DNA from: Cohaesibacter marisflavi
GTDB lineage: Bacteria > Pseudomonadota > Alphaproteobacteria > Rhizobiales > Cohaesibacteraceae
DNA: 64,000 nucleotides
Direction: 5' to 3'
Assembly: GCF_900115225.1 (NCBI RefSeq)
Contig: NZ_FOVR01000012.1
Span: forward strand, 62,001-126,000
The notes beneath the pieces are model-generated. The model ran no database searches. It saw nothing but the letters and a program-made list of their open reading frames with translations, and was not told where the DNA came from. Positions 4,581-15,851 of this stretch are shown here, piece by piece. Each line of letters starts with the position of its first letter. Positions within the stretch are counted from its first letter, which is position 1. A program made the position numbers and the translations under genes.

Positions 4581-4611
4581 AAAAAAAGCCAGCTTTGCGG
4601 GCTGGCTTTTT
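4581..4611. terminator. Bidirectional rho-independent terminator
   Basis: Stem GCCAGC/GCTGGC (4588-4593 with 4601-4606) with a 7-base loop. It is flanked by seven A on the left and five T on the right, so it can work on either strand. On the minus strand it closes the diflavin reductase gene, which ends 20 bases away at 4632. Confidence 0.85.
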
Positions 4612-4631: not shown

Positions 4632-6386
4632 TCAATAGACGTCGCGCACGTAGCGCTTTTCCTTTTTCATCAGATTAACATAGTCCATGGCACCGTCTGA
4701 GCTGAGACCAGCCTGTTCTGAAATCACCTTGTGCAAGGCGCGATCCACGTCTTTGGCCATGCGAGAGGCATCGCCACAGACATAAAAATGACCACCTTCT
4801 TCGAGTGCAGCGTAAAGATCCTTAGCATGCTCTTGCATACGGGTCTGGACATAGATCTTCTCAGCCTGATCGCGAGAGAAGGCAAGATCCAGCCGGTTCA
4901 GAATGCCGTCAGATTGCATCTTGGCCAATTCGTCCTTGTAGATGAAATCGGTCTTTTCATGCTGGTCACCAAAGAATAACCAGTTATAGCCCTTGGCTCC
5001 GATTGCCTGACGTTCCTGAAGGAAGGCGCGGAACGGAGCGATACCAGTTCCCGGTCCAACCATAATCATGGGAACATCGTTGTTTTCTGGCACGCGGAAG
5101 CTCTTGTTGGGCGAAACAAAAACCTTGGATTTTTCATTGCCGACACGATCAGCAAGAAAACAGGATGCAACGCCACCATGTTTGCGCCCATGGCTTTCAT
5201 AGCGTACGGAAGCAATTGTTAGATGCACGCTGTCTGCAAACATCTTCGAGCTGGAGGAGATAGAATAGGCACGATGCTGCAAAGGTTTGAAGAGCTTGAT
5301 CAGCTCATCAACCGAAAAGCGTGCTTTGGGATGCAGTCTTGCAATATCCAGAGCATCCTTGGACCACAAATACGCTTCCATCGCCTCTTTGTCGTTGAAG
5401 TCGACAATATGCTGGAGATGCTCATCATCCGTGCGAGCCGCAATGGCCTTGATGAATTCACTGGACGGTGTTGAAATTTCCAACTGGCTGAACAGCAGTT
5501 CTTCAAGCGACTTGTCTTTGCCGGATACAGCGGTATCTCCGGACACACCCAAATAGTCCAGCCACTCTGAGACGAGGGCAGGGTCGTTGGTCGGGACAAT
5601 GTTCAGGGCATCGCCTGCAACATAGTTTGGCCCATCGTTGGAAAGATCAAATTCGTAATGGCGAATTTCTTTCGCGGAGCCTTCACCTGAAAGCAGATGA
5701 TTGACCGTAACCGGCGCTTCAAACGGGTTCTTGCGCGTCCATTTAGATTTGGCCGGCTTGGCAGCCGCCGCAGCGCTATGCGGGATTGGCCCACCTGCGT
5801 CTTCGGGCTTGTGTTTTGCCAGTTCTTCGCGCGCTGAGGCCATCCAGCCGTCAGCACTTTCTTCAAAGTCGACGTCGCAGTCCACACGAGCCGCCAAACG
5901 CTTGGCACCCAGTTGTTCGAACCGCAGGTCAAACTGCTTACCGGCTTCGCAATAGCCGTCATAGGCGGTATCACCCAGCGCCAGAACAGAGAAATGCATA
6001 TGTTCAAGGCGAGGGGCGTCCGCCGCCTTAAGGGCATCCCAGAAGAGTTGCGCGTTATCAGGCATTTCCCCTTCACCATAGGTGGAGGTAATCAGGAAAA
6101 CATAATTCATTTCGACCAGCGCGGATACTTCCACATCATCCAGCGAGGCGACAACGGCGTTGACGCCTTCTGCCTTGAGCGTCGCGGCGAAATCTTCAGC
6201 CAACCCTTCCGAGTTCCCTGTCTGGGTACCGAAAAGGATGTGAGCGGTAATGGTCGATTGGGATTCGGACGTAGAGGACTTTTTGCCGGCGAGCATCTGG
6301 GTGTGCAGCCCCGCATAGAAGCCAGCTAACCAGGACTTCTGGTCTTCAGAAAAAGGGGAGTCATCAGGAAGGAAAGGTATGGTCAT
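4632..6386 (-). CDS. CysJ-like diflavin reductase (NADPH, FAD, FMN), likely partner of the adjacent GltB-like protein
   Basis: 584-residue NADPH-dependent diflavin reductase. A flavodoxin-like FMN domain (about residues 48-195) has FGTQTGNSEG, STYGEGEMPDNA and LGDTAYDGYC. A linker and FAD domain follows with the RAYSISSS motif. The NADPH domain has GPGTGIAPFRAF and YVCGDASRMAKDVD, and the protein ends in RYVRDVY like CysJ. By family it would be called sulfite reductase flavoprotein alpha, but no CysI haemoprotein or other sulfate-assimilation gene lies in the window. It sits about 60 bases downstream of the oversized glutamate synthase on the same strand. I infer that it delivers NADPH electrons to that enzyme in place of GltD. 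The alternative, a genuine sulfite reductase subunit, cannot be excluded. Confidence 0.85.
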   Translation of the reverse strand: MTIPFLPDDSPFSEDQKSWLAGFYAGLHTQMLAGKKSSTSESQSTITAHILFGTQTGNSEGLAEDFAATLKAEGVNAVVASLDDVEVSALVEMNYVFLITSTYGEGEMPDNAQLFWDALKAADAPRLEHMHFSVLALGDTAYDGYCEAGKQFDLRFEQLGAKRLAARVDCDVDFEESADGWMASAREELAKHKPEDAGGPIPHSAAAAAKPAKSKWTRKNPFEAPVTVNHLLSGEGSAKEIRHYEFDLSNDGPNYVAGDALNIVPTNDPALVSEWLDYLGVSGDTAVSGKDKSLEELLFSQLEISTPSSEFIKAIAARTDDEHLQHIVDFNDKEAMEAYLWSKDALDIARLHPKARFSVDELIKLFKPLQHRAYSISSSSKMFADSVHLTIASVRYESHGRKHGGVASCFLADRVGNEKSKVFVSPNKSFRVPENNDVPMIMVGPGTGIAPFRAFLQERQAIGAKGYNWLFFGDQHEKTDFIYKDELAKMQSDGILNRLDLAFSRDQAEKIYVQTRMQEHAKDLYAALEEGGHFYVCGDASRMAKDVDRALHKVISEQAGLSSDGAMDYVNLMKKEKRYVRDVY

Positions 6387-6444
6387 CTCTCATTGATCCG
6401 TCAATTGAAATTGATATCGAAAGGACGTCTTGGAAAGCAGGTGC

Positions 6445-9400
6445 TCATGGCACCTGCTTGACCAGTTCCTGGCTGGAAGTCGCAGCAAACAAGCTTTCGA
6501 AATCCGGCAACTCGCCCATGGCTTTGCGGTTCAACCGATCCTGAAGCAGGATCCAACCATATGTCCCGATGGAATCCATCAGGCGGACGTTACGGTTGGA
6601 CAGAGCCGTTTTATAGTCCTTCATGCGCTTGTCAGAAACCAGCACGGCCAGTTCCAGATCTGAATAGTCTTCCAGAGCCTTGCGCGCGATGCCGGACAAT
6701 TTCGTCATCAGGGTGAAATCCTCGGTGAGGATTAGCTTGCGAACACCGCTATTGAGCGTTTCCGCACTGATTTCAGCGCCGCGATAGCGCCCTTTGACGA
6801 TCTGCTGGGCCATGTTGATCACGGTGAAATTGTTGATCAGCTCATACATCAGCTTGGTGTCAGTTTCACCTTGCTGAGGAATGATGCCGTTCGCAATCAC
6901 CTTGCCATCCCGATAGGCCAGCTTGAACTTGCGCAGTTGGTACGAAACCAGTGCGTTTGCTAGCTCTTCGGTCAGTTCCTTGCGTGGTTTGGCCTTCAGA
7001 ATAGCTTCATAATTCTGATAGGTTTCAAGCGCCAACGGCGTGGCGAACTTGAAGTTAGCCATTTCAGTATCAAAATTTTCCAGAAGGAACTTGGCTTTTT
7101 CAGAACCGGTGAACTTCACGTGATGACGCAGCAGGCGCTTGACTGCGATCTGGTGGAGCTTGGCCCGGTCACTATCGCCGTCAAGACGATGCAGCTTGAC
7201 CGAGTCATGGCTGTAGAGGGCTTCCAGCTGATCATAAGGATCATACTGGTAGGCAACACCACCGGACATGCCGTTACAGAAGCCCTTGCCAAAGCCGCCA
7301 AGGTTCATGATGGCTCCGTTGGTCATATATTCGCCGCAGAAGTCACCAACCCCTTCGACAACTGCGGTTGCCCCGGAGTTACGAACGCCAAAGCGGTCGC
7401 CAGCGCCCCCTTCAACAAACAGAGACCCGCCAGAGGCGCCAAAGAGAGCGAAGTTGCCGATCAGATAGTTTTCTTCTGTACCACCACCCGGCGTATGGAT
7501 GGCGATGTTGCCACCAGATGCGCCCTTGCCGACACCATCGTTACAGGTGCCGACATGATGGAACACCATGCCGGAGTTACAGAAGGCCGCAAAAGACTGG
7601 CCAGCTGAACCGTGCGTGTGGATTTCCAGCGTTTCTGGCTTGAGCATGTTGCGCCCGCGATCATCGGTATAGACCATCGGCATGGACTTCACATGCTTTT
7701 CAGAAATTTCGTGCTGCAGCATGCGTTCGATGTCAATCGCCAACTGGCCACCAACGGTCTTGTTGCGGTTGTCCAATTTCTTCTCAACAACGAGCTTTGC
7801 ATTTCTGTGATGGCGCTGAACAGCCTTGTTCTTGAATTCCTTCAAGAGCATATCGTCAATTTCAAAATGCGCTTCCAGATAAACCGGCTCTTTGATGTGA
7901 ACTTCTTTGACCACTTGCAGCATGTTGCGCAGATCCATCTGACCGATCGCGCTTGGATGCTTGATCAGGTGCAGATAGTCTGAGCGGCCACGGGCTTCAC
8001 GCATGCTCTTGAAGCCGAGATTTGAGAGAATCTCGCGGCATTCATGGGCGATATTCATCAGATACTGTCCAAGAGCGCGCGGGTCACCATCGAACACTTC
8101 TGAGTTTGTCGTCAGGCCTGCAGGGCATTTGACGTTACAGTTTTTCGCCATGACGCATTTGAGCATCATCAAGGCTGTCGTACCAAACTCGAAGCTGTCG
8201 CCACCAAGCAGGCAGGATTTGATCACATCTGTTGCAGTCTGGTGCGCACCGGAGCAACGCAGGACGACCTTGTCGCGTAGACCGTTGGCACAGAGTGCCT
8301 GATGCACTTCAGCAAGACCGATCTCGGCTGCACGGCCAGTGTTTTTGAGCGAGGTAACCGCAGCAGCCCCCGTGCCACCGGTGTTCCCGGCAATATTGAT
8401 GACGTCAGCACCAGCCTTGGCAACACCCACAGCGATCGTGCCAATGCCTTCAGAGGATACGAGCTTAACGATAACTCTCACACGCGCTGCCTTGGCGTCA
8501 TGAATGAGCTGCGCCAGATCCTCAATGGAATAGGTGTCGTGATGCGGAGGAGGTGAGATAAGCTCGACCCCCGGCGTGCCGCCACGCGCGGCAGCAATCT
8601 CGACCGTTACTTTCTTGCCTGGCAACTGGCCGCCTTCACCCGGCTTGGCACCTTGTGCAATCTTGATCTCGATTTCTTCTAGCGTCGGGTCGGCCAGATA
8701 GCCGGTCCAAACGCCGAAGCGACCGGAAGCAAGCTGCTTGATGCTCGAAGAGCGGATCGTGCCATAACGGGAATAATGCTCACCACCTTCACCAGAGTTG
8801 GAGAAGGCGCCGACCATGTTTGCACCATGGGCAACAGCTTCATGAGCCGGAGCCACCAGAGCCCCATGAGACATGGCGCCAGAGGCTAGCATCGCCGTAA
8901 TTTCATGAGCTGGCTGAACCTTGTTCAGAGCCAACTTGCCGTTTGGACGCTTGTGGTTGGCCAGATAGTTATGCGCAAGCCCCTTGGCGGTGATATGAAT
9001 ATGTTCACCATCAGTTTCCATGGTGAGCAACTCGTCACCGAACTGTTTTTTCAGGGCGACAGAAAGGGCAACCAGTCTTTCGTGGCTATATTTGCTCGCA
9101 AAGAAGGCCGTAAAGCTGTCGTCCTTATTGTGATGAACCCGCAAACCACGCACATAGAAGTTGTTGTTGCCGATCAGATCATGCCGGAACAGTTCGTGTT
9201 GGAATTCATCTGCCGTGGTTGCCCAGCTGATATCCGTTGGGAAGCTCAGTACGTCACGCAGAGCCGCAGGACGTGCTTCACGTTCCTTGGCCAGTTCCAG
9301 AGCAAACTTGCGATAGTTTGGCGTGATTTTGAAGGCGTCGATTTCCTCCGGCGTACGGCGTCCGAAGCTGGTGTTCCGATAGGAATCCGAGCTCTTGCCA

Positions 9401-11925
9401 TAAGCATCCTTGAGTTTCTCGACAGGCAGAAGGCGCAAATCATTGACATTTGCATCGCCCTTTTCAGGGGCGGACAAATCCGACTGGATCGGCTCTTCAG
9501 TCATTTCAACAAACCCGCGAACAGCCAACGTACCATAAGTATGACCGGCCCCCTCGGAACGCTCTTTAAAGAGTCCGAGAAGAGGAATGTCATCTTCGGT
9601 TTTGACTTCGCACGCGCGAATGTGCCAATCAACAACGCTTTTTGCTACAGAAGCAAAGTCAACGCCACCAACCGTGTTCTTCATGTTGGGGAAGTAGCGT
9701 TTCAGAATGGCTTCGTCCGTATCAAGGAAGTTCGGCTCAAAGAATTCACCGCCAATGTAGCTCTCCGCGGTGCAGAGGCCAACCTTACCCATGGTCTTCA
9801 TGAGGGATTTGTTGGCCGCGTAGATGAACTGCTTGATATTTGCCTTGGCAGCGTCAAGGTCGCCCTTAGCAAACTCCATGGCGCGGGCTTCCACGACGAT
9901 CGGCATAACAGCCGAGGCACCAAAGCCCAGAGCCGTCGCGATCTGATGGGCAGAGGCAATCTGACCACTTTCCGCAACAAGAGACACACGGAAGCGCACG
10001 CCCTGTTCAATTAGGCGCTGGTTGGCAGCCGAAATCATCAAAGGCAGAGGAATGGCGGCTCTTTTCTCGTCCACCATCGCGTCGGACAGGATGACGATGC
10101 CACCCTTTTCGCGCGCAGCTTCTTCCACCTCATCGCAAACGGCATCAACCGCGGCGATGAGATCGTCCTGTGCCTTTGTCTTGTTGGCTTTGTGATCAAC
10201 AAGGAAGGTCATGGCGATTTCGGTGACTTCCACATCGCCTTGCGCCCGAATGGCAGCCAGATCATCTGGCGAAAGCACCGGCGTTGGAACGACCAACTGC
10301 TTGGTTTCGCCTTTGTTAAAATGTGGCTTCGCACCCAGGGCAACACGCAAGGTCATGCCGTCTGCTTCGCGTAAACTGTCGAGCGGCGGGTTGGTGACCT
10401 GAGCAAAGCGCTGGGAGAAATATTTCGACATGCCGCCTTCCTGATCGGTCAGCGCGTTGATCGCTACGCCGTAGCCCATAGCCGAAATCTTTTCCTTGCC
10501 GGTCTGCATCATCGGATCGAGCAGGAACTTGAAGCTTTCCTGGTTGAGACCATAGGCAACCGAACGCTGAACATCGGTGAAGGATTCCGCAACCTTGGTT
10601 TTGCCATCTGTGCGCGGCAGATCATCAAGATTTTTGCGGGCTTTCTCAAGCAGCGAACGATAGTCGCGCTTTGACGCAAGCATTTTGAGAGCTTCATCTG
10701 ACGTGAAGGACTGCTTAGCCTCATGATCATAGTAAAGCATGCCACCAGCTTCGATGCGTCCACGCCGCAAGATGCTTTCAGGGTCAAAATCAACCTGACC
10801 GGCCTCTGACATCACACAAAGATATTCGTCCGTCTCTACAGAGCGGAGAGGGCGCAGGCCCAAACGGTCAAGGCGCGCACCCACGACATTGCCGTTACCG
10901 AAGATCAAAGCGGCCGGTCCGTCATTCTTTTCTTCATAAAGAGAGAAATATTCGAGCATCACGCGAACATCTTCGGGAAAACGCGTGTCATTCTCCCAAG
11001 CTGGCGGCATCATGGCCACAACAGCCGTGATCAGATCAAGATCGTCCTCAATCAGACGACGCTCCAGCGTTTGGTCAAGACGCGCAGAATCAGACTGCCC
11101 GGGAGGGGAATAGATCTGCTGATTTTTCATCTGGGCAATGGTTGCTTCAGAGAGACGGTTCTTCTTGTCCGTGTTGAGCTCGCCGTTATGCGCCATCAAA
11201 CGGAACGGCTGCGCCATGGAAGGCTGCGGCTCGGTGTTGGTGGAGAAACGCGTATGGAAGAACAGCGAGTGGATCTTGTGATCCTCATCGGTCAGATCGT
11301 AAAAATAGGGGATGACCTCGTTCGAGTTGAGGCGGCCCTTATAGACCTGCGTATGCGCAGACATGGAAAGCGGGTAAAGCCCCTTGAGGTCAGGATCCAG
11401 ATAAGCCACGGCTTCAATGGCCATTAGCGCATCATGAATCTTGCGGTCAAAGGTCTTGGCATCCATCGTTTCATCTTTAATGAAAACAACCTGATGCACC
11501 GTCAGCATATATTTCAAGGCTGCCGGGCGAATGACCGAATTGTTCACCGGAGCATCGCGTACAAGAACGATGCGCAAACCATTCTTTTCAAGGCTTTCCT
11601 TGATCAGCTTGTCTGCAGCATCCCAGTTCTTTTTCAGCTCTGGCAGGAAGAAGTTGCCAACGCCGAATTCGCCCAGTTCCAAAGTGGGGAGGCCTGTGAT
11701 CTTGCGGAAGAAAGACAGAGACAAATCAACGCAAACGCCAGCGCCATCGCCGACACCTTCCGCGCTCATGCCGCCACGATGGGGAACGGTGCACAAAGCT
11801 TCGTTCGCCTTCAAAAGAACATCATGGGTTTGAACGCCGGATTTGTAAGTCAAGAAGCCAACACCGCAGCTGCTTTTTTCAAAGCTATGGTCATACAGGC
11901 CGAATTGATTCTGAGACTGTTCCAA
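6445..11925 (-). CDS. GltB-like glutamate synthase large subunit, oversized variant without GltD
   Basis: About 1,826 residues, against roughly 1,500 for usual GltB. The N-terminal type II amidotransferase has the nucleophile Cys in SSCGVGF about 20 residues in, implying a short propeptide. The synthase barrel has GEGGQLPGKKV and GNTGGTGAA, with cluster cysteines in CVMAKNCNVKC (spacing C-x5-C-x3-C; canonical enzymes have C-x5-C-x4-C). The GXGXG helix domain follows. Two regions are extra: about 100 residues around HDLIGNNNFYVRGL before the synthase core, and about 200 residues at the C-terminus after FLLENFD. Predicted reaction: glutamine + 2-oxoglutarate + 2e- to 2 glutamate. No GltD is nearby; the next gene is a diflavin reductase. 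Start: TTG at 11925 has AGGA eight bases upstream; the GTG at 11940 has no ribosome site, but would add only five residues. Confidence 0.88.
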   Translation of the reverse strand: MEQSQNQFGLYDHSFEKSSCGVGFLTYKSGVQTHDVLLKANEALCTVPHRGGMSAEGVGDGAGVCVDLSLSFFRKITGLPTLELGEFGVGNFFLPELKKNWDAADKLIKESLEKNGLRIVLVRDAPVNNSVIRPAALKYMLTVHQVVFIKDETMDAKTFDRKIHDALMAIEAVAYLDPDLKGLYPLSMSAHTQVYKGRLNSNEVIPYFYDLTDEDHKIHSLFFHTRFSTNTEPQPSMAQPFRLMAHNGELNTDKKNRLSEATIAQMKNQQIYSPPGQSDSARLDQTLERRLIEDDLDLITAVVAMMPPAWENDTRFPEDVRVMLEYFSLYEEKNDGPAALIFGNGNVVGARLDRLGLRPLRSVETDEYLCVMSEAGQVDFDPESILRRGRIEAGGMLYYDHEAKQSFTSDEALKMLASKRDYRSLLEKARKNLDDLPRTDGKTKVAESFTDVQRSVAYGLNQESFKFLLDPMMQTGKEKISAMGYGVAINALTDQEGGMSKYFSQRFAQVTNPPLDSLREADGMTLRVALGAKPHFNKGETKQLVVPTPVLSPDDLAAIRAQGDVEVTEIAMTFLVDHKANKTKAQDDLIAAVDAVCDEVEEAAREKGGIVILSDAMVDEKRAAIPLPLMISAANQRLIEQGVRFRVSLVAESGQIASAHQIATALGFGASAVMPIVVEARAMEFAKGDLDAAKANIKQFIYAANKSLMKTMGKVGLCTAESYIGGEFFEPNFLDTDEAILKRYFPNMKNTVGGVDFASVAKSVVDWHIRACEVKTEDDIPLLGLFKERSEGAGHTYGTLAVRGFVEMTEEPIQSDLSAPEKGDANVNDLRLLPVEKLKDAYGKSSDSYRNTSFGRRTPEEIDAFKITPNYRKFALELAKEREARPAALRDVLSFPTDISWATTADEFQHELFRHDLIGNNNFYVRGLRVHHNKDDSFTAFFASKYSHERLVALSVALKKQFGDELLTMETDGEHIHITAKGLAHNYLANHKRPNGKLALNKVQPAHEITAMLASGAMSHGALVAPAHEAVAHGANMVGAFSNSGEGGEHYSRYGTIRSSSIKQLASGRFGVWTGYLADPTLEEIEIKIAQGAKPGEGGQLPGKKVTVEIAAARGGTPGVELISPPPHHDTYSIEDLAQLIHDAKAARVRVIVKLVSSEGIGTIAVGVAKAGADVINIAGNTGGTGAAAVTSLKNTGRAAEIGLAEVHQALCANGLRDKVVLRCSGAHQTATDVIKSCLLGGDSFEFGTTALMMLKCVMAKNCNVKCPAGLTTNSEVFDGDPRALGQYLMNIAHECREILSNLGFKSMREARGRSDYLHLIKHPSAIGQMDLRNMLQVVKEVHIKEPVYLEAHFEIDDMLLKEFKNKAVQRHHRNAKLVVEKKLDNRNKTVGGQLAIDIERMLQHEISEKHVKSMPMVYTDDRGRNMLKPETLEIHTHGSAGQSFAAFCNSGMVFHHVGTCNDGVGKGASGGNIAIHTPGGGTEENYLIGNFALFGASGGSLFVEGGAGDRFGVRNSGATAVVEGVGDFCGEYMTNGAIMNLGGFGKGFCNGMSGGVAYQYDPYDQLEALYSHDSVKLHRLDGDSDRAKLHQIAVKRLLRHHVKFTGSEKAKFLLENFDTEMANFKFATPLALETYQNYEAILKAKPRKELTEELANALVSYQLRKFKLAYRDGKVIANGIIPQQGETDTKLMYELINNFTVINMAQQIVKGRYRGAEISAETLNSGVRKLILTEDFTLMTKLSGIARKALEDYSDLELAVLVSDKRMKDYKTALSNRNVRLMDSIGTYGWILLQDRLNRKAMGELPDFESLFAATSSQELVKQVP

Positions 11926-13967: not shown

Positions 13968-15851
13968 TCAGTATGTCTGTTTCACATAGCTGCCTGGAGC
14001 GTCTTCGAGCGGGGAATATTGTTCCGAGCCTACCGGGCGCGCATCGACGCAAGATGTTTCTTTGGTAATAATCCAACGGTGCCAATCAGGCCACCATGAG
14101 CCCTGTGTTTCCTGCGCACGTTCCAGCCAATCGCCTAGCGCACCTTCTACAGGGCCGCCACGCCAGAATTGATATTTGCGACGCTCTGGAGGATTGACGA
14201 CGCCTGCAATATGTCCCGAGCCGCCTAATCTAAAATCCACCGGTCCCCCAAAGAGCTTGCACCCCTTGAATACGGAGCGGGCAGGGGCGATGTGGTCTTC
14301 CTTCATGGCAAGGCAATAGATTGGCGACCGGATTGCTGAAAGTTGAAGCTGCAGACCATCCAGTATCATAGTTCCCGTTGCCAGCGCATTCTCCAGATAG
14401 CACTTGCGTAAATAATAGGAATGACAAGCCGCCGTCATGCGGGTGCAGTCCTGATTCCAGAACAGAAGATCGAAGGGAAACGGCTCAAGCCCCCGCATAT
14501 AGTTGTTGACGAAATAGGGCCATATCAGATCGTTTGGCCGCAGCATGTTAAAGACATTGCCCATCGACATGCCGTCCAGATAGCCTTGCGCATTCATGAC
14601 CTTTTCCAGCTCGGTGAGTTGCTCTTCATCGATGAATATCTTGAGATCTCCCGCTTCGGTGAAATCCACCTGCGCAGCAAAGAGCGTTATGCTGTTGATC
14701 CAATCAAGATTTTTGGCTGCAAGATAGGCTGCCGCAGCAGAAAGCAAGGTGCCACCAACGCAATAGCCGACTGTATTGACGCGATCCTCGCCTGTTATCT
14801 GTCGAATTGTTTCAATGGAATTGATGACACCATCCTGCATATAGTCTTCAAAGGTCTTGTGCTTCAGGCTTTCATCAGGATTGACCCAGGAGACCGCAAA
14901 CACCGTATGCCCCTGTTCCACGCACCACTTGATGAAGCTTTTGCGCTCATTGAGATCGAGAATGTAATATTTATTGATCCATGAAGAGAGGATGAGGAGA
15001 GGCGTTTTCAAGACCGTGTCGGTGTTGGGTTCGTACTGGATAAGCTGGCAGATATCATTCTGGGCGACCACCTTGCCTGGCGTGATGGCAATATTTTCTC
15101 CCAGACCAAACTCAGAGATATCCGTCTGCCGGATGAGTAAATTGCCGCCACCAGCCTGAATGTCCTCGGCCAGCATCTGCATGCCACGGATCAAATTCTC
15201 TCCGTCATTTTCCAGCGTCTCCCGTAGCAGCTCGGGATTCGTCAAGACATAGTTGGAGGGAGAGAACGCATTGATTATCTGATTGACGTAAAACAGCGCT
15301 TTGAGTCGGGTGTGGTCATCAATCGTCTCGGCCTCGCTGACCATTTCATTGGCCCACTGAGACGCAATAAGATAGAGCTGCCTAACGAATGAGAAGAAAG
15401 GATTACTCTGCCATTCCGGATCATTAAAGCGCAAATCATCCTTGCCGGCAAAGGCGACATCCTCTTCATCTCCTCCGAGCATTTTGCGACTGGATGCTCC
15501 CCAAAGATCAAGACAGCGCCCCCAAAGTCGCGTTTGCGCTTCCATCGCACGCACCGGATCAGAGGACCAGTAGTGCGTCACTTCACCAAAGGTGCGCACC
15601 ATATGGTTTACATAGTCAACCGTATGCGTATCCATGCCATTTTCACGCGGACGAAGATAAGCGGACGCAACCTTGCCAGCCTGCTCAACAACCTTGGCGA
15701 TGTTGGCTGCAAATTTCTCTGGGTCATGGATCATGAAATCAGAAAATTCCGTCGGCCCCGCGCCCCCACTGGTAGAGGAAGACGCATCAGCAGTCTTGTC
15801 CGCGCCGTGCGACCCAGCTGTGTCATCGTCCTTGTCTTTCTCATCAACCAT
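13968..15851 (-). CDS. phaC: Class I poly(3-hydroxyalkanoate) synthase PhaC
   Basis: Polymerises (R)-3-hydroxyacyl-CoA into PHA granules. The lipase-like box GYCVGGT carries the nucleophile Cys364 (numbered from ATG 15851). The Asp (in AMKEDHIAP) and His (in GGSGHIAGVVNPP) of the triad follow in the expected order. The N-terminal half has the class I signature with NPEWQSNPFFSFVRQLY. At 627 residues it is slightly longer than the roughly 590 of the Cupriavidus enzyme because of an acidic, low-complexity N-terminus (DEKDKDDDTAGSHGADKTADASSSTSGG). No phaA, phaB, phasin or phaR adjoins it in the window. It is divergent from the lipoprotein gene at 16259. Confidence 0.96.
   Translation of the reverse strand: MVDEKDKDDDTAGSHGADKTADASSSTSGGAGPTEFSDFMIHDPEKFAANIAKVVEQAGKVASAYLRPRENGMDTHTVDYVNHMVRTFGEVTHYWSSDPVRAMEAQTRLWGRCLDLWGASSRKMLGGDEEDVAFAGKDDLRFNDPEWQSNPFFSFVRQLYLIASQWANEMVSEAETIDDHTRLKALFYVNQIINAFSPSNYVLTNPELLRETLENDGENLIRGMQMLAEDIQAGGGNLLIRQTDISEFGLGENIAITPGKVVAQNDICQLIQYEPNTDTVLKTPLLILSSWINKYYILDLNERKSFIKWCVEQGHTVFAVSWVNPDESLKHKTFEDYMQDGVINSIETIRQITGEDRVNTVGYCVGGTLLSAAAAYLAAKNLDWINSITLFAAQVDFTEAGDLKIFIDEEQLTELEKVMNAQGYLDGMSMGNVFNMLRPNDLIWPYFVNNYMRGLEPFPFDLLFWNQDCTRMTAACHSYYLRKCYLENALATGTMILDGLQLQLSAIRSPIYCLAMKEDHIAPARSVFKGCKLFGGPVDFRLGGSGHIAGVVNPPERRKYQFWRGGPVEGALGDWLERAQETQGSWWPDWHRWIITKETSCVDARPVGSEQYSPLEDAPGSYVKQTY

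What the first reader, a model, noticed from the sequence alone, without database searches (positions are those of the whole stretch)
4632..11925. GltD-less glutamate synthase paired with a CysJ-like diflavin reductase
A GltB-like protein about 300 residues longer than usual is followed by an NADPH diflavin reductase where gltD would be expected. Known bacterial NADPH-GltS uses GltD (FAD, two 4Fe-4S clusters) as electron source; CysJ proteins serve sulfite reductase. No CysI or GltD lies in the window. The two genes are co-oriented, about 60 bases apart, and share one terminator. I infer a distinct enzyme in which electrons pass NADPH-FAD-FMN to the FMN/3Fe-4S synthase.
Basis: partly seen in the sequence, partly recalled or inferred. 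Interest (0 to 1): 0.75.

Follow-up and report, generated by a model that had tools for sequence, protein, structure and literature searches.

The report
Diflavin-driven glutamate synthase replacing GltBD
Many bacteria appear to make glutamate from ammonia with an enlarged glutamate synthase powered by a CysJ-like NADPH reductase instead of its usual GltD partner, a third, so far mislabelled, version of a central metabolic enzyme.

Summary
A 1826-residue GltB-like protein (window 6445-11925, minus strand) is followed after 58 bp by a 584-residue CysJ-like diflavin reductase.

It is not a local oddity. All 89 distinct loci examined with this long GltB (Proteobacteria, Actinomycetota, Verrucomicrobiota) have the diflavin gene directly downstream. 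Of 50 named genomes with the long form, 18 show no ordinary GltB; 14 of those 18 (9 isolates, 5 MAGs) show no GltD-like protein at E<=1e-30. The window's genome has one GltB and no GltD above curated cut-offs.

The linked diflavins form their own supported clade, apart from those beside sulfite reductases. Long GltBs share a changed [3Fe-4S] motif (C-x5-C-x3-C, not C-x5-C-x4-C), inserts and a helical C-terminal extension without Pfam matches.

A paper reports that knocking out gltB makes Pantoea ananatis a glutamate auxotroph; the identity it gives fits the long form only. So the long enzyme very probably works as a glutamate synthase without GltD.

That the diflavin is its electron donor is inferred, not shown. 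I judge this a third class of bacterial glutamate synthase, annotated as 'sulfite reductase alpha' or cysJ beside 'glutamate synthase-related protein' or gltB in the three plasmid records opened.

The parts
6445..11925 (-). Long-form gltB (1826 aa): GATase_2 20-424, central domain 454-730, FMN/synthase domain 990-1305, GXGXG 1419-1585
   Evidence: Pfam; best solved relatives are GltS chains; NCBIfam PRK11750 1018.3 bits, just under its cut-off of 1047
11866..11868 (-). Codon of Cys20, equivalent of the mature N-terminal catalytic Cys1 of the glutaminase domain
   Evidence: aligned to residue 1 of 1ea0 and 1llw; Cys in 88 of 89 long rows, the other is cut at its start
8125..8157 (-). [3Fe-4S] ligands C1257, C1263, C1267 with spacing C-x5-C-x3-C, one residue shorter than in ordinary GltB
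   Evidence: 89 of 89 long rows (86 distinct loci) against 0 of 3 ordinary; also L129-L131. Ligand role by alignment, recalled
9331..9492 (-). Insert 1 of the long form (residues 812-865)
   Evidence: absent from all 3 ordinary GltBs in the alignment
8947..9201 (-). Insert 2 (residues 909-993), predicted small alpha/beta module in front of the FMN barrel
   Evidence: blocks at pLDDT about 85-94; no Pfam match at E<=10 for residues 790-1000
6448..6975 (-). C-terminal extension (residues 1651-1826), all-helical, conserved across the family
   Evidence: alignment A2; AlphaFold2 pLDDT 86.1, pTM 0.80; no Pfam match at E<=10; no PDB match at E<=0.001
6387..6444 (-). 58-bp intergenic gap
   Evidence: in 83 of 88 other long rows measured the gap is -4 to 189 nt, median 19
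4632..6386 (-). CysJ-like NADPH diflavin reductase (584 aa): N-terminal helix, flavodoxin 50-174, FAD 217-409, NADPH 442-548
   Evidence: Pfam; NCBIfam TIGR01931 607.7 (cut-off 668.15), NF004859 447.6 (cut-off 432); cofactor motifs present
4583..4611 (-). Hairpin with A and T runs downstream of the reductase gene, possible shared terminator
   Evidence: 13 pairs, listed on + strand; number of such sites not above chance

Best explanation
The two genes encode one enzyme: a third class of bacterial glutamate synthase. The long GltB does the usual chemistry: glutaminase at Cys20, ammonia tunnel, and reduction of 2-iminoglutarate at FMN in the synthase domain. NADPH reduces the FAD of the CysJ-like protein, electrons pass to its flavodoxin-type FMN, and that FMN docks on the long GltB and reduces its [3Fe-4S] cluster, which feeds the synthase FMN. 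The diflavin thus replaces GltD and its two [4Fe-4S] clusters. The inserts, the C-terminal helical extension and the shortened cluster loop are probably the adaptations of the docking and electron-entry side. Shown here: linkage, absence of GltD in many of these genomes, kept catalytic residues, separate clades, changed cluster motif. Reported in print: gltB is needed for glutamate synthesis in P. ananatis. Inferred: physical pairing, electron path, role of the extra modules.
For: Diflavin gene directly downstream on the same strand in 80 of 80 loci and in 9 further distinct loci (window; L088-L092; L129-L131); also in 3 of 3 plasmid copies opened out of 9 close hits. Order-wide draw of 120 genomes: long form in 8, GltD above cut-off in 1 of those 8. 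Of 20 full-length CysJ places (>=500 bits), 8 lie beside long GltB and 12 beside NIR_SIR proteins. 50 named genomes: 18 show only the long GltB; 14 of those 18 show no GltD-like protein at E<=1e-30. Tree of 95 rows: 64 GltB-linked diflavins in one clade (98) with 3 mycobacterial stand-alone ones; the 21 rows beside NIR_SIR proteins (neighbours checked) lie outside it. [3Fe-4S] spacing 89 of 89 rows against 0 of 3. Distances of the two proteins correlate, r 0.92 in 64 pairs. NADPH motif in 64 of 64. gltB knockout of P. ananatis is a Glu auxotroph (passages of PMC12364357); P. ananatis LMG 2665 shows only the long form and no GltD-like protein (G148).
Against: No biochemistry on the pair. 31 of 50 genomes also have an ordinary GltB, so there the long form is an extra. 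One locus (L129) has an ordinary gltB and gltD directly upstream of the long pair. The window genome has an NfnB/GltA-type GltD homologue elsewhere (L003, over the TIGR01316 cut-off) that could in principle donate electrons, and 4 of the 18 long-only named genomes have some GltD-like protein. 6 of the 18 are MAGs, where absence is weak; at most 36 candidates per genome were scored. Lack of GltD is not special to the long form: G161, which also has an ordinary GltB, shows none either. Three mycobacterial diflavins of the same clade are not directly beside a long gltB. The r of 0.92 would also follow from shared descent. No gene fusion was seen among 6 long forms in 397 genomes, and the family is uncommon in that draw.
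Confidence: 0.85

Rival explanations
1. The long GltB is a ferredoxin- or flavodoxin-dependent glutamate synthase; the neighbouring diflavin is a conserved passenger or only regenerates free flavodoxin/ferredoxin.
For: Fd-GltS also lacks a GltD partner; a flavodoxin-like FMN domain is what would reduce it. Long GltB matches Synechocystis Fd-GltS almost as well as the others (687.5 bits against 708-808).
Against: The long form lacks the extra loop of the Synechocystis enzyme between its residues 914 and 933 (that this is the ferredoxin loop is recalled). A passenger would hardly be kept in 89 of 89 loci, in some overlapping (-4 nt), nor form its own clade.
Confidence: 0.07
2. The reductase is an ordinary sulfite reductase alpha subunit that happens to lie by gltB and serves a sulfite reductase elsewhere.
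For: It reaches the NCBIfam cut-off for 'sulfite reductase subunit alpha' (NF004859) and has an N-terminal helix like that of CysI-linked CysJ. 7 of the 8 long-form genomes of the order draw do have a NIR_SIR gene.
Against: No NIR_SIR protein found in this assembly (a gap is possible). Two relatives of the same genus have a sir next to cysH, in one of them also near DUF934 and an FNR-type reductase gene, and that one has a separate CysJ beside another NIR_SIR protein. Six Pantoea/Erwinia-group genomes carry a second CysJ (895-919 bits) besides the GltB-linked one (608-614 bits); it lies beside CysI in the 5 of 6 opened. No CysI-like ORF was found in the 80 loci. The two kinds separate in the tree.
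Confidence: 0.04
3. In this organism an unlinked GltD homologue (NfnB/GltA type) reduces the long GltB, and the diflavin has another role.
For: L003 is over the TIGR01316 'NADPH-dependent glutamate synthase' cut-off (576.6 against 471.75).
Against: It stays under both GltD cut-offs, is next to an NfnA-like gene (by eye), and 14 of 18 long-only named genomes show no GltD-like protein at E<=1e-30.
Confidence: 0.04

Closest known systems
NADPH-dependent glutamate synthase GltBD (Azospirillum, E. coli)
   Same: GltB domains in the same order, catalytic Cys, M479-equivalent, three cluster cysteines
   Different: No GltD; about 300 residues longer; cluster motif one residue shorter; 35-37% identity to three ordinary GltBs
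Ferredoxin-dependent glutamate synthase (cyanobacteria, plants)
   Same: Large subunit without GltD, electron donor from outside
   Different: Lacks the extra loop at 914-933 of the Synechocystis chain; has its own linked NADPH reductase
NADPH sulfite reductase flavoprotein CysJ (partner CysI)
   Same: FMN-FAD-NADPH diflavin with N-terminal helix, encoded next to its acceptor
   Different: Neighbour is a glutamate synthase; separate clade; under the TIGR01931 cut-off; 19 positions at 90% or more in the GltB-linked rows and at most 10% in 17 of the 21 CysI-linked rows (4 divergent ones left out)
Diflavin-containing monomeric nitrate reductase (title seen in the reference list of PMC10704036; paper not held)
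   Same: CysJ-type module recruited to another oxidoreductase; molybdopterin-diflavin fusions (4 of 7 checked by Pfam) lie next to the GltB-linked clade in the tree
   Different: Fused to a molybdopterin oxidoreductase, not encoded beside GltB; that the fusions are nitrate reductases is by resemblance

Membership tests
GltBD NADPH-glutamate synthase | GltB with glutaminase, central, FMN and GXGXG domains | tested here: met
GltBD NADPH-glutamate synthase | GltD beta subunit in the operon and genome | tested here: not met
GltBD NADPH-glutamate synthase | [3Fe-4S] motif C-x5-C-x4-C | tested here: not met
   C-x5-C-x3-C in 89 of 89 long rows, C-x5-C-x4-C in 3 of 3 ordinary
GltBD NADPH-glutamate synthase | NADPH-dependent glutamate formation | not testable with these tools
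   only indirect: gltB knockout phenotype in P. ananatis (PMC12364357 passages)
Fd-dependent glutamate synthase | extra loop between residues 914 and 933 of the Synechocystis chain | tested here: not met
   alignment; role of the loop recalled
CysJ sulfite reductase flavoprotein | flavodoxin, FAD and NADPH domains with their motifs | tested here: met
CysJ sulfite reductase flavoprotein | CysI or other NIR_SIR partner beside the gene or in the genome | tested here: not met
   none in G000 (an assembly gap is not excluded); no CysI-like ORF in the 80 loci
CysJ sulfite reductase flavoprotein | groups with CysI-linked CysJ in a tree | tested here: not met
   GltB-linked clade 98 without any NIR_SIR-linked row; unrooted, the 21 NIR_SIR-linked rows form one side of a branch of support 78
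Diflavin reductase superfamily | flavodoxin-FAD-NAD(P) domain order, C-terminal aromatic | tested here: met

The most novel reading that the evidence does not exclude
A third class of glutamate synthase: long GltB plus a dedicated CysJ-type diflavin, assembled by capture of a diflavin reductase, spread as a two-gene unit across phyla and on plasmids, and replacing GltBD as the only glutamate synthase in lineages such as Pantoea, Pseudovibrio and Cohaesibacter, where it carries ammonia assimilation.
Probability: 0.82. Interest if true: 0.85.

Novelty: new variant of a known kind. Interest (0 to 1): 0.78.

Why it matters
Glutamate synthase is a main entry of ammonia into biomass when ammonia is low. 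A review of iron-sulfur flavoenzymes, seen in passages, describes a GltD-dependent bacterial form and a ferredoxin form (PMC8097209), and a review of diflavin reductases, seen in passages, does not hold the word glutamate and lists no glutamate synthase in the family (PMC3509625). A diflavin-driven form would add a new acceptor to the one family and a new electron donor to the other. It would explain how Pantoea ananatis can have a GOGAT without a GltD, and it would correct the names of two genes: a 'sulfite reductase alpha' beside a long gltB would be a nitrogen-assimilation gene. Natural genomes that lack GltD make the test simple.

Tried and rejected

Rows dropped: 23 loci, mostly near copies, were left out of the tree by hand, plus stretches under 400 aligned residues and duplicates; one search covers 50 of the 80 named loci, 37 of these 50, 31 genomes (23 of these 50 and 8 of the order draw). 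G169 was not counted as long-only because fragments of what looks like an ordinary GltB lie on other contigs. The 89 rows hold three repeats (86 distinct).

Full report
What is there. The window lies in a 5.34-Mb genome (41 contigs, 98.5% complete) related to Cohaesibacter (83% identity of GltB to C. celericrescens). On the minus strand, 11925-6445 encodes 1826 residues with all four GltB domains, and 6386-4632 encodes a 584-residue protein with flavodoxin, FAD and NAD(P) domains. The gap is 58 bp. The first falls just short of the NCBIfam cut-off for GltB (1018.3 of 1047 bits); the second falls under TIGR01931 cysJ (607.7 of 668.15) but over NF004859 'sulfite reductase subunit alpha' (447.6 of 432). 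This fits the public names: the three plasmid copies opened carry 'glutamate synthase-related protein' (two) or 'gltB' (one), followed by 'sulfite reductase flavoprotein subunit alpha', 'sulfite reductase subunit alpha' or 'cysJ'.

The window's genome. PF01645 finds one gene, the long GltB. PF01077, which covers sulfite and nitrite reductases, finds nothing, while 113 of 120 genomes of the order have it. PF14691 finds four GltD-like proteins elsewhere (five matches). The closest, L003, is over the cut-off of TIGR01316 but under both GltD models, and has an NfnA-like gene beside it; the others are under both GltD cut-offs. The missing sulfite reductase may be a gap: in two genomes of the genus a sir and a cysH lie together, and both are missing here.

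Linkage. A search of GTDB species genomes with the GltB protein alone gave 80 loci (the best 80 of 589 relatives). In 80 of 80 the diflavin gene follows directly on the same strand. None has a GltD-like gene next to it, though one (L076) has a weak hit about 5 kb away and several loci are cut by contig ends; the same query does find the gltD of L129. No CysI-like ORF was found in these loci. The gap between the genes is -4 to 189 nt, median 19, in 83 of 88 rows measured. One exception in context: L129 reads gltB, gltD, long gltB, diflavin.

Replacement of GltBD. In 120 genomes of the order, 8 have the long form (open frames 1832-1879 aa); 7 of these 8 show no ordinary GltB (matches listed down to E about 7e-89). 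TIGR01317 (GltD) is over its cut-off in 1 of the 8 (G071, which also has an ordinary GltB), and in 8 of the 11 other genomes searched. Among 50 named genomes with the long form, 31 also have an ordinary GltB, 18 do not, and one (G169) is unclear. Of the 18, 14 show no GltD-like protein at E<=1e-30; three have weaker homologues and one (G149) a 641-aa protein with an extra ferredoxin-like part (it resembles AegA, a name I recall). By record title 6 of the 18, and 5 of the 14, are MAGs. The 14 include the genome with the complete chromosome of Pantoea agglomerans HJS002 (G146) and that of Aquisalinus flavus (G168). Two more genomes of the order draw, G081 and G062, also show none. Against a simple rule, G161 has an ordinary GltB besides the long one and no GltD-like protein either.

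Two kinds of CysJ. In the 120 genomes, full-length CysJ (>=500 bits) occurs at 20 places in 18 genomes: 8 beside the 8 long GltBs, 10 beside a NIR_SIR match and 2 beside NIR_SIR proteins seen on opening the loci. Six genomes of the Pantoea/Erwinia group carry both kinds. In a tree of 95 rows the 64 GltB-linked proteins fall in one clade with support 98, which also holds three mycobacterial stand-alone diflavins. All 21 rows labelled CysI-linked do have a NIR_SIR-type neighbour; none falls in that clade. Unrooted, these 21 form one side of a branch of support 78 (not starred); drawn from the midpoint, two of them (L095, L096) sit on a long branch nearer the GltB side, as do the diflavin modules fused to molybdopterin oxidoreductases. 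Rhodococcus rows and a Verrucomicrobiales MAG nest among Alphaproteobacteria, which suggests transfer. Distances of GltB and diflavin correlate at r 0.92 over 64 pairs, against at most 0.22 in 2000 permutations; common descent alone could also give this.

Sequence marks. In 92 aligned rows the three cluster cysteines are spaced C-x5-C-x3-C in 89 of 89 long rows (86 distinct loci) and C-x5-C-x4-C in 3 of 3 ordinary ones; the catalytic Cys is kept in 88 of 89 (one row cut at its start) and the M479 equivalent in 89 of 89. A review (passages) says that M479 may control electron transfer between the cluster and FMN. The long form has inserts at 812-865, 909-993, 1402-1421 and a C-terminal extension from about 1651; the extension and the region 790-1000 match no Pfam family at E<=10. 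The GltB-linked diflavins keep FMN, FAD and NADPH motifs; the NADPH motif is in 64 of 64 rows (meaning of the motifs recalled).

Function. PMC12364357 (passages read) reports that P. ananatis AJ13355 has no close homologue of E. coli GOGAT, has a putative gltB 64% identical to that of Agrobacterium tumefaciens, and that a gltB knockout is a glutamate auxotroph (citing Hara 2012, which is not held). In my alignment P. ananatis LMG 2665 long GltB is 67-68% identical to Agrobacterium long forms and about 36% to three ordinary GltBs, so the gene in question is very probably the long form, though I did not see the AJ13355 sequence. LMG 2665 shows no ordinary GltB and no GltD-like protein (G148). 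The words gltD, sulfite and flavoprotein do not occur in the paper's main text, apart from gltBD for E. coli. So the long GltB supports glutamate synthesis where no GltD is found; the linked diflavin is the obvious reductant.

Conclusion. The best reading is a two-component enzyme: NADPH to FAD to FMN in the diflavin, then [3Fe-4S] to FMN in the long GltB. It works like GltBD but fails two of its defining features (GltD, cluster motif), and it is not a sulfite reductase subunit by context or tree. I file it as a new variant, a third class, of glutamate synthase.

Noticed in passing
L129:4174-14001 (minus strand): Ordinary gltB (cut by the stretch), gltD, long gltB and the diflavin gene in one row: both classes of glutamate synthase side by side.
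   Followed up: partly
L046:3140-4753, L049:3189-4802, L124:3056-4663: Mycobacterial stand-alone diflavins without the N-terminal helix that fall inside the GltB-linked clade but are not directly beside a long gltB; partner unknown.
   Followed up: partly
L095:4041-7557 and L096:1959-5482: A second kind of CysJ paired with a NIR_SIR protein of about 580 aa, on a long branch of its own.
   Followed up: partly
L118-L123, L125: CysJ-like modules at the C-terminus of 1290-1383-aa proteins; the four checked by Pfam are molybdopterin oxidoreductases; two different ones (L122, L123) in one Mycobacteroides genome.
   Followed up: partly
G000 contig C11 end (L137:14033-16257): A cysD-like gene and a cysN-like gene cut by the contig end lie near what look by eye like polysaccharide export genes, while sir and cysH are not found in the assembly.
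   Followed up: partly
L138 (NC_014621.1), Ketogulonicigenium vulgare plasmid pYP1: The gltB-diflavin pair lies on a plasmid typed as conjugative.
   Followed up: no
window 13968-15851: Polyhydroxyalkanoate synthase gene (PhaC_N, 236.9 bits) two genes upstream of the pair's start.
   Followed up: no
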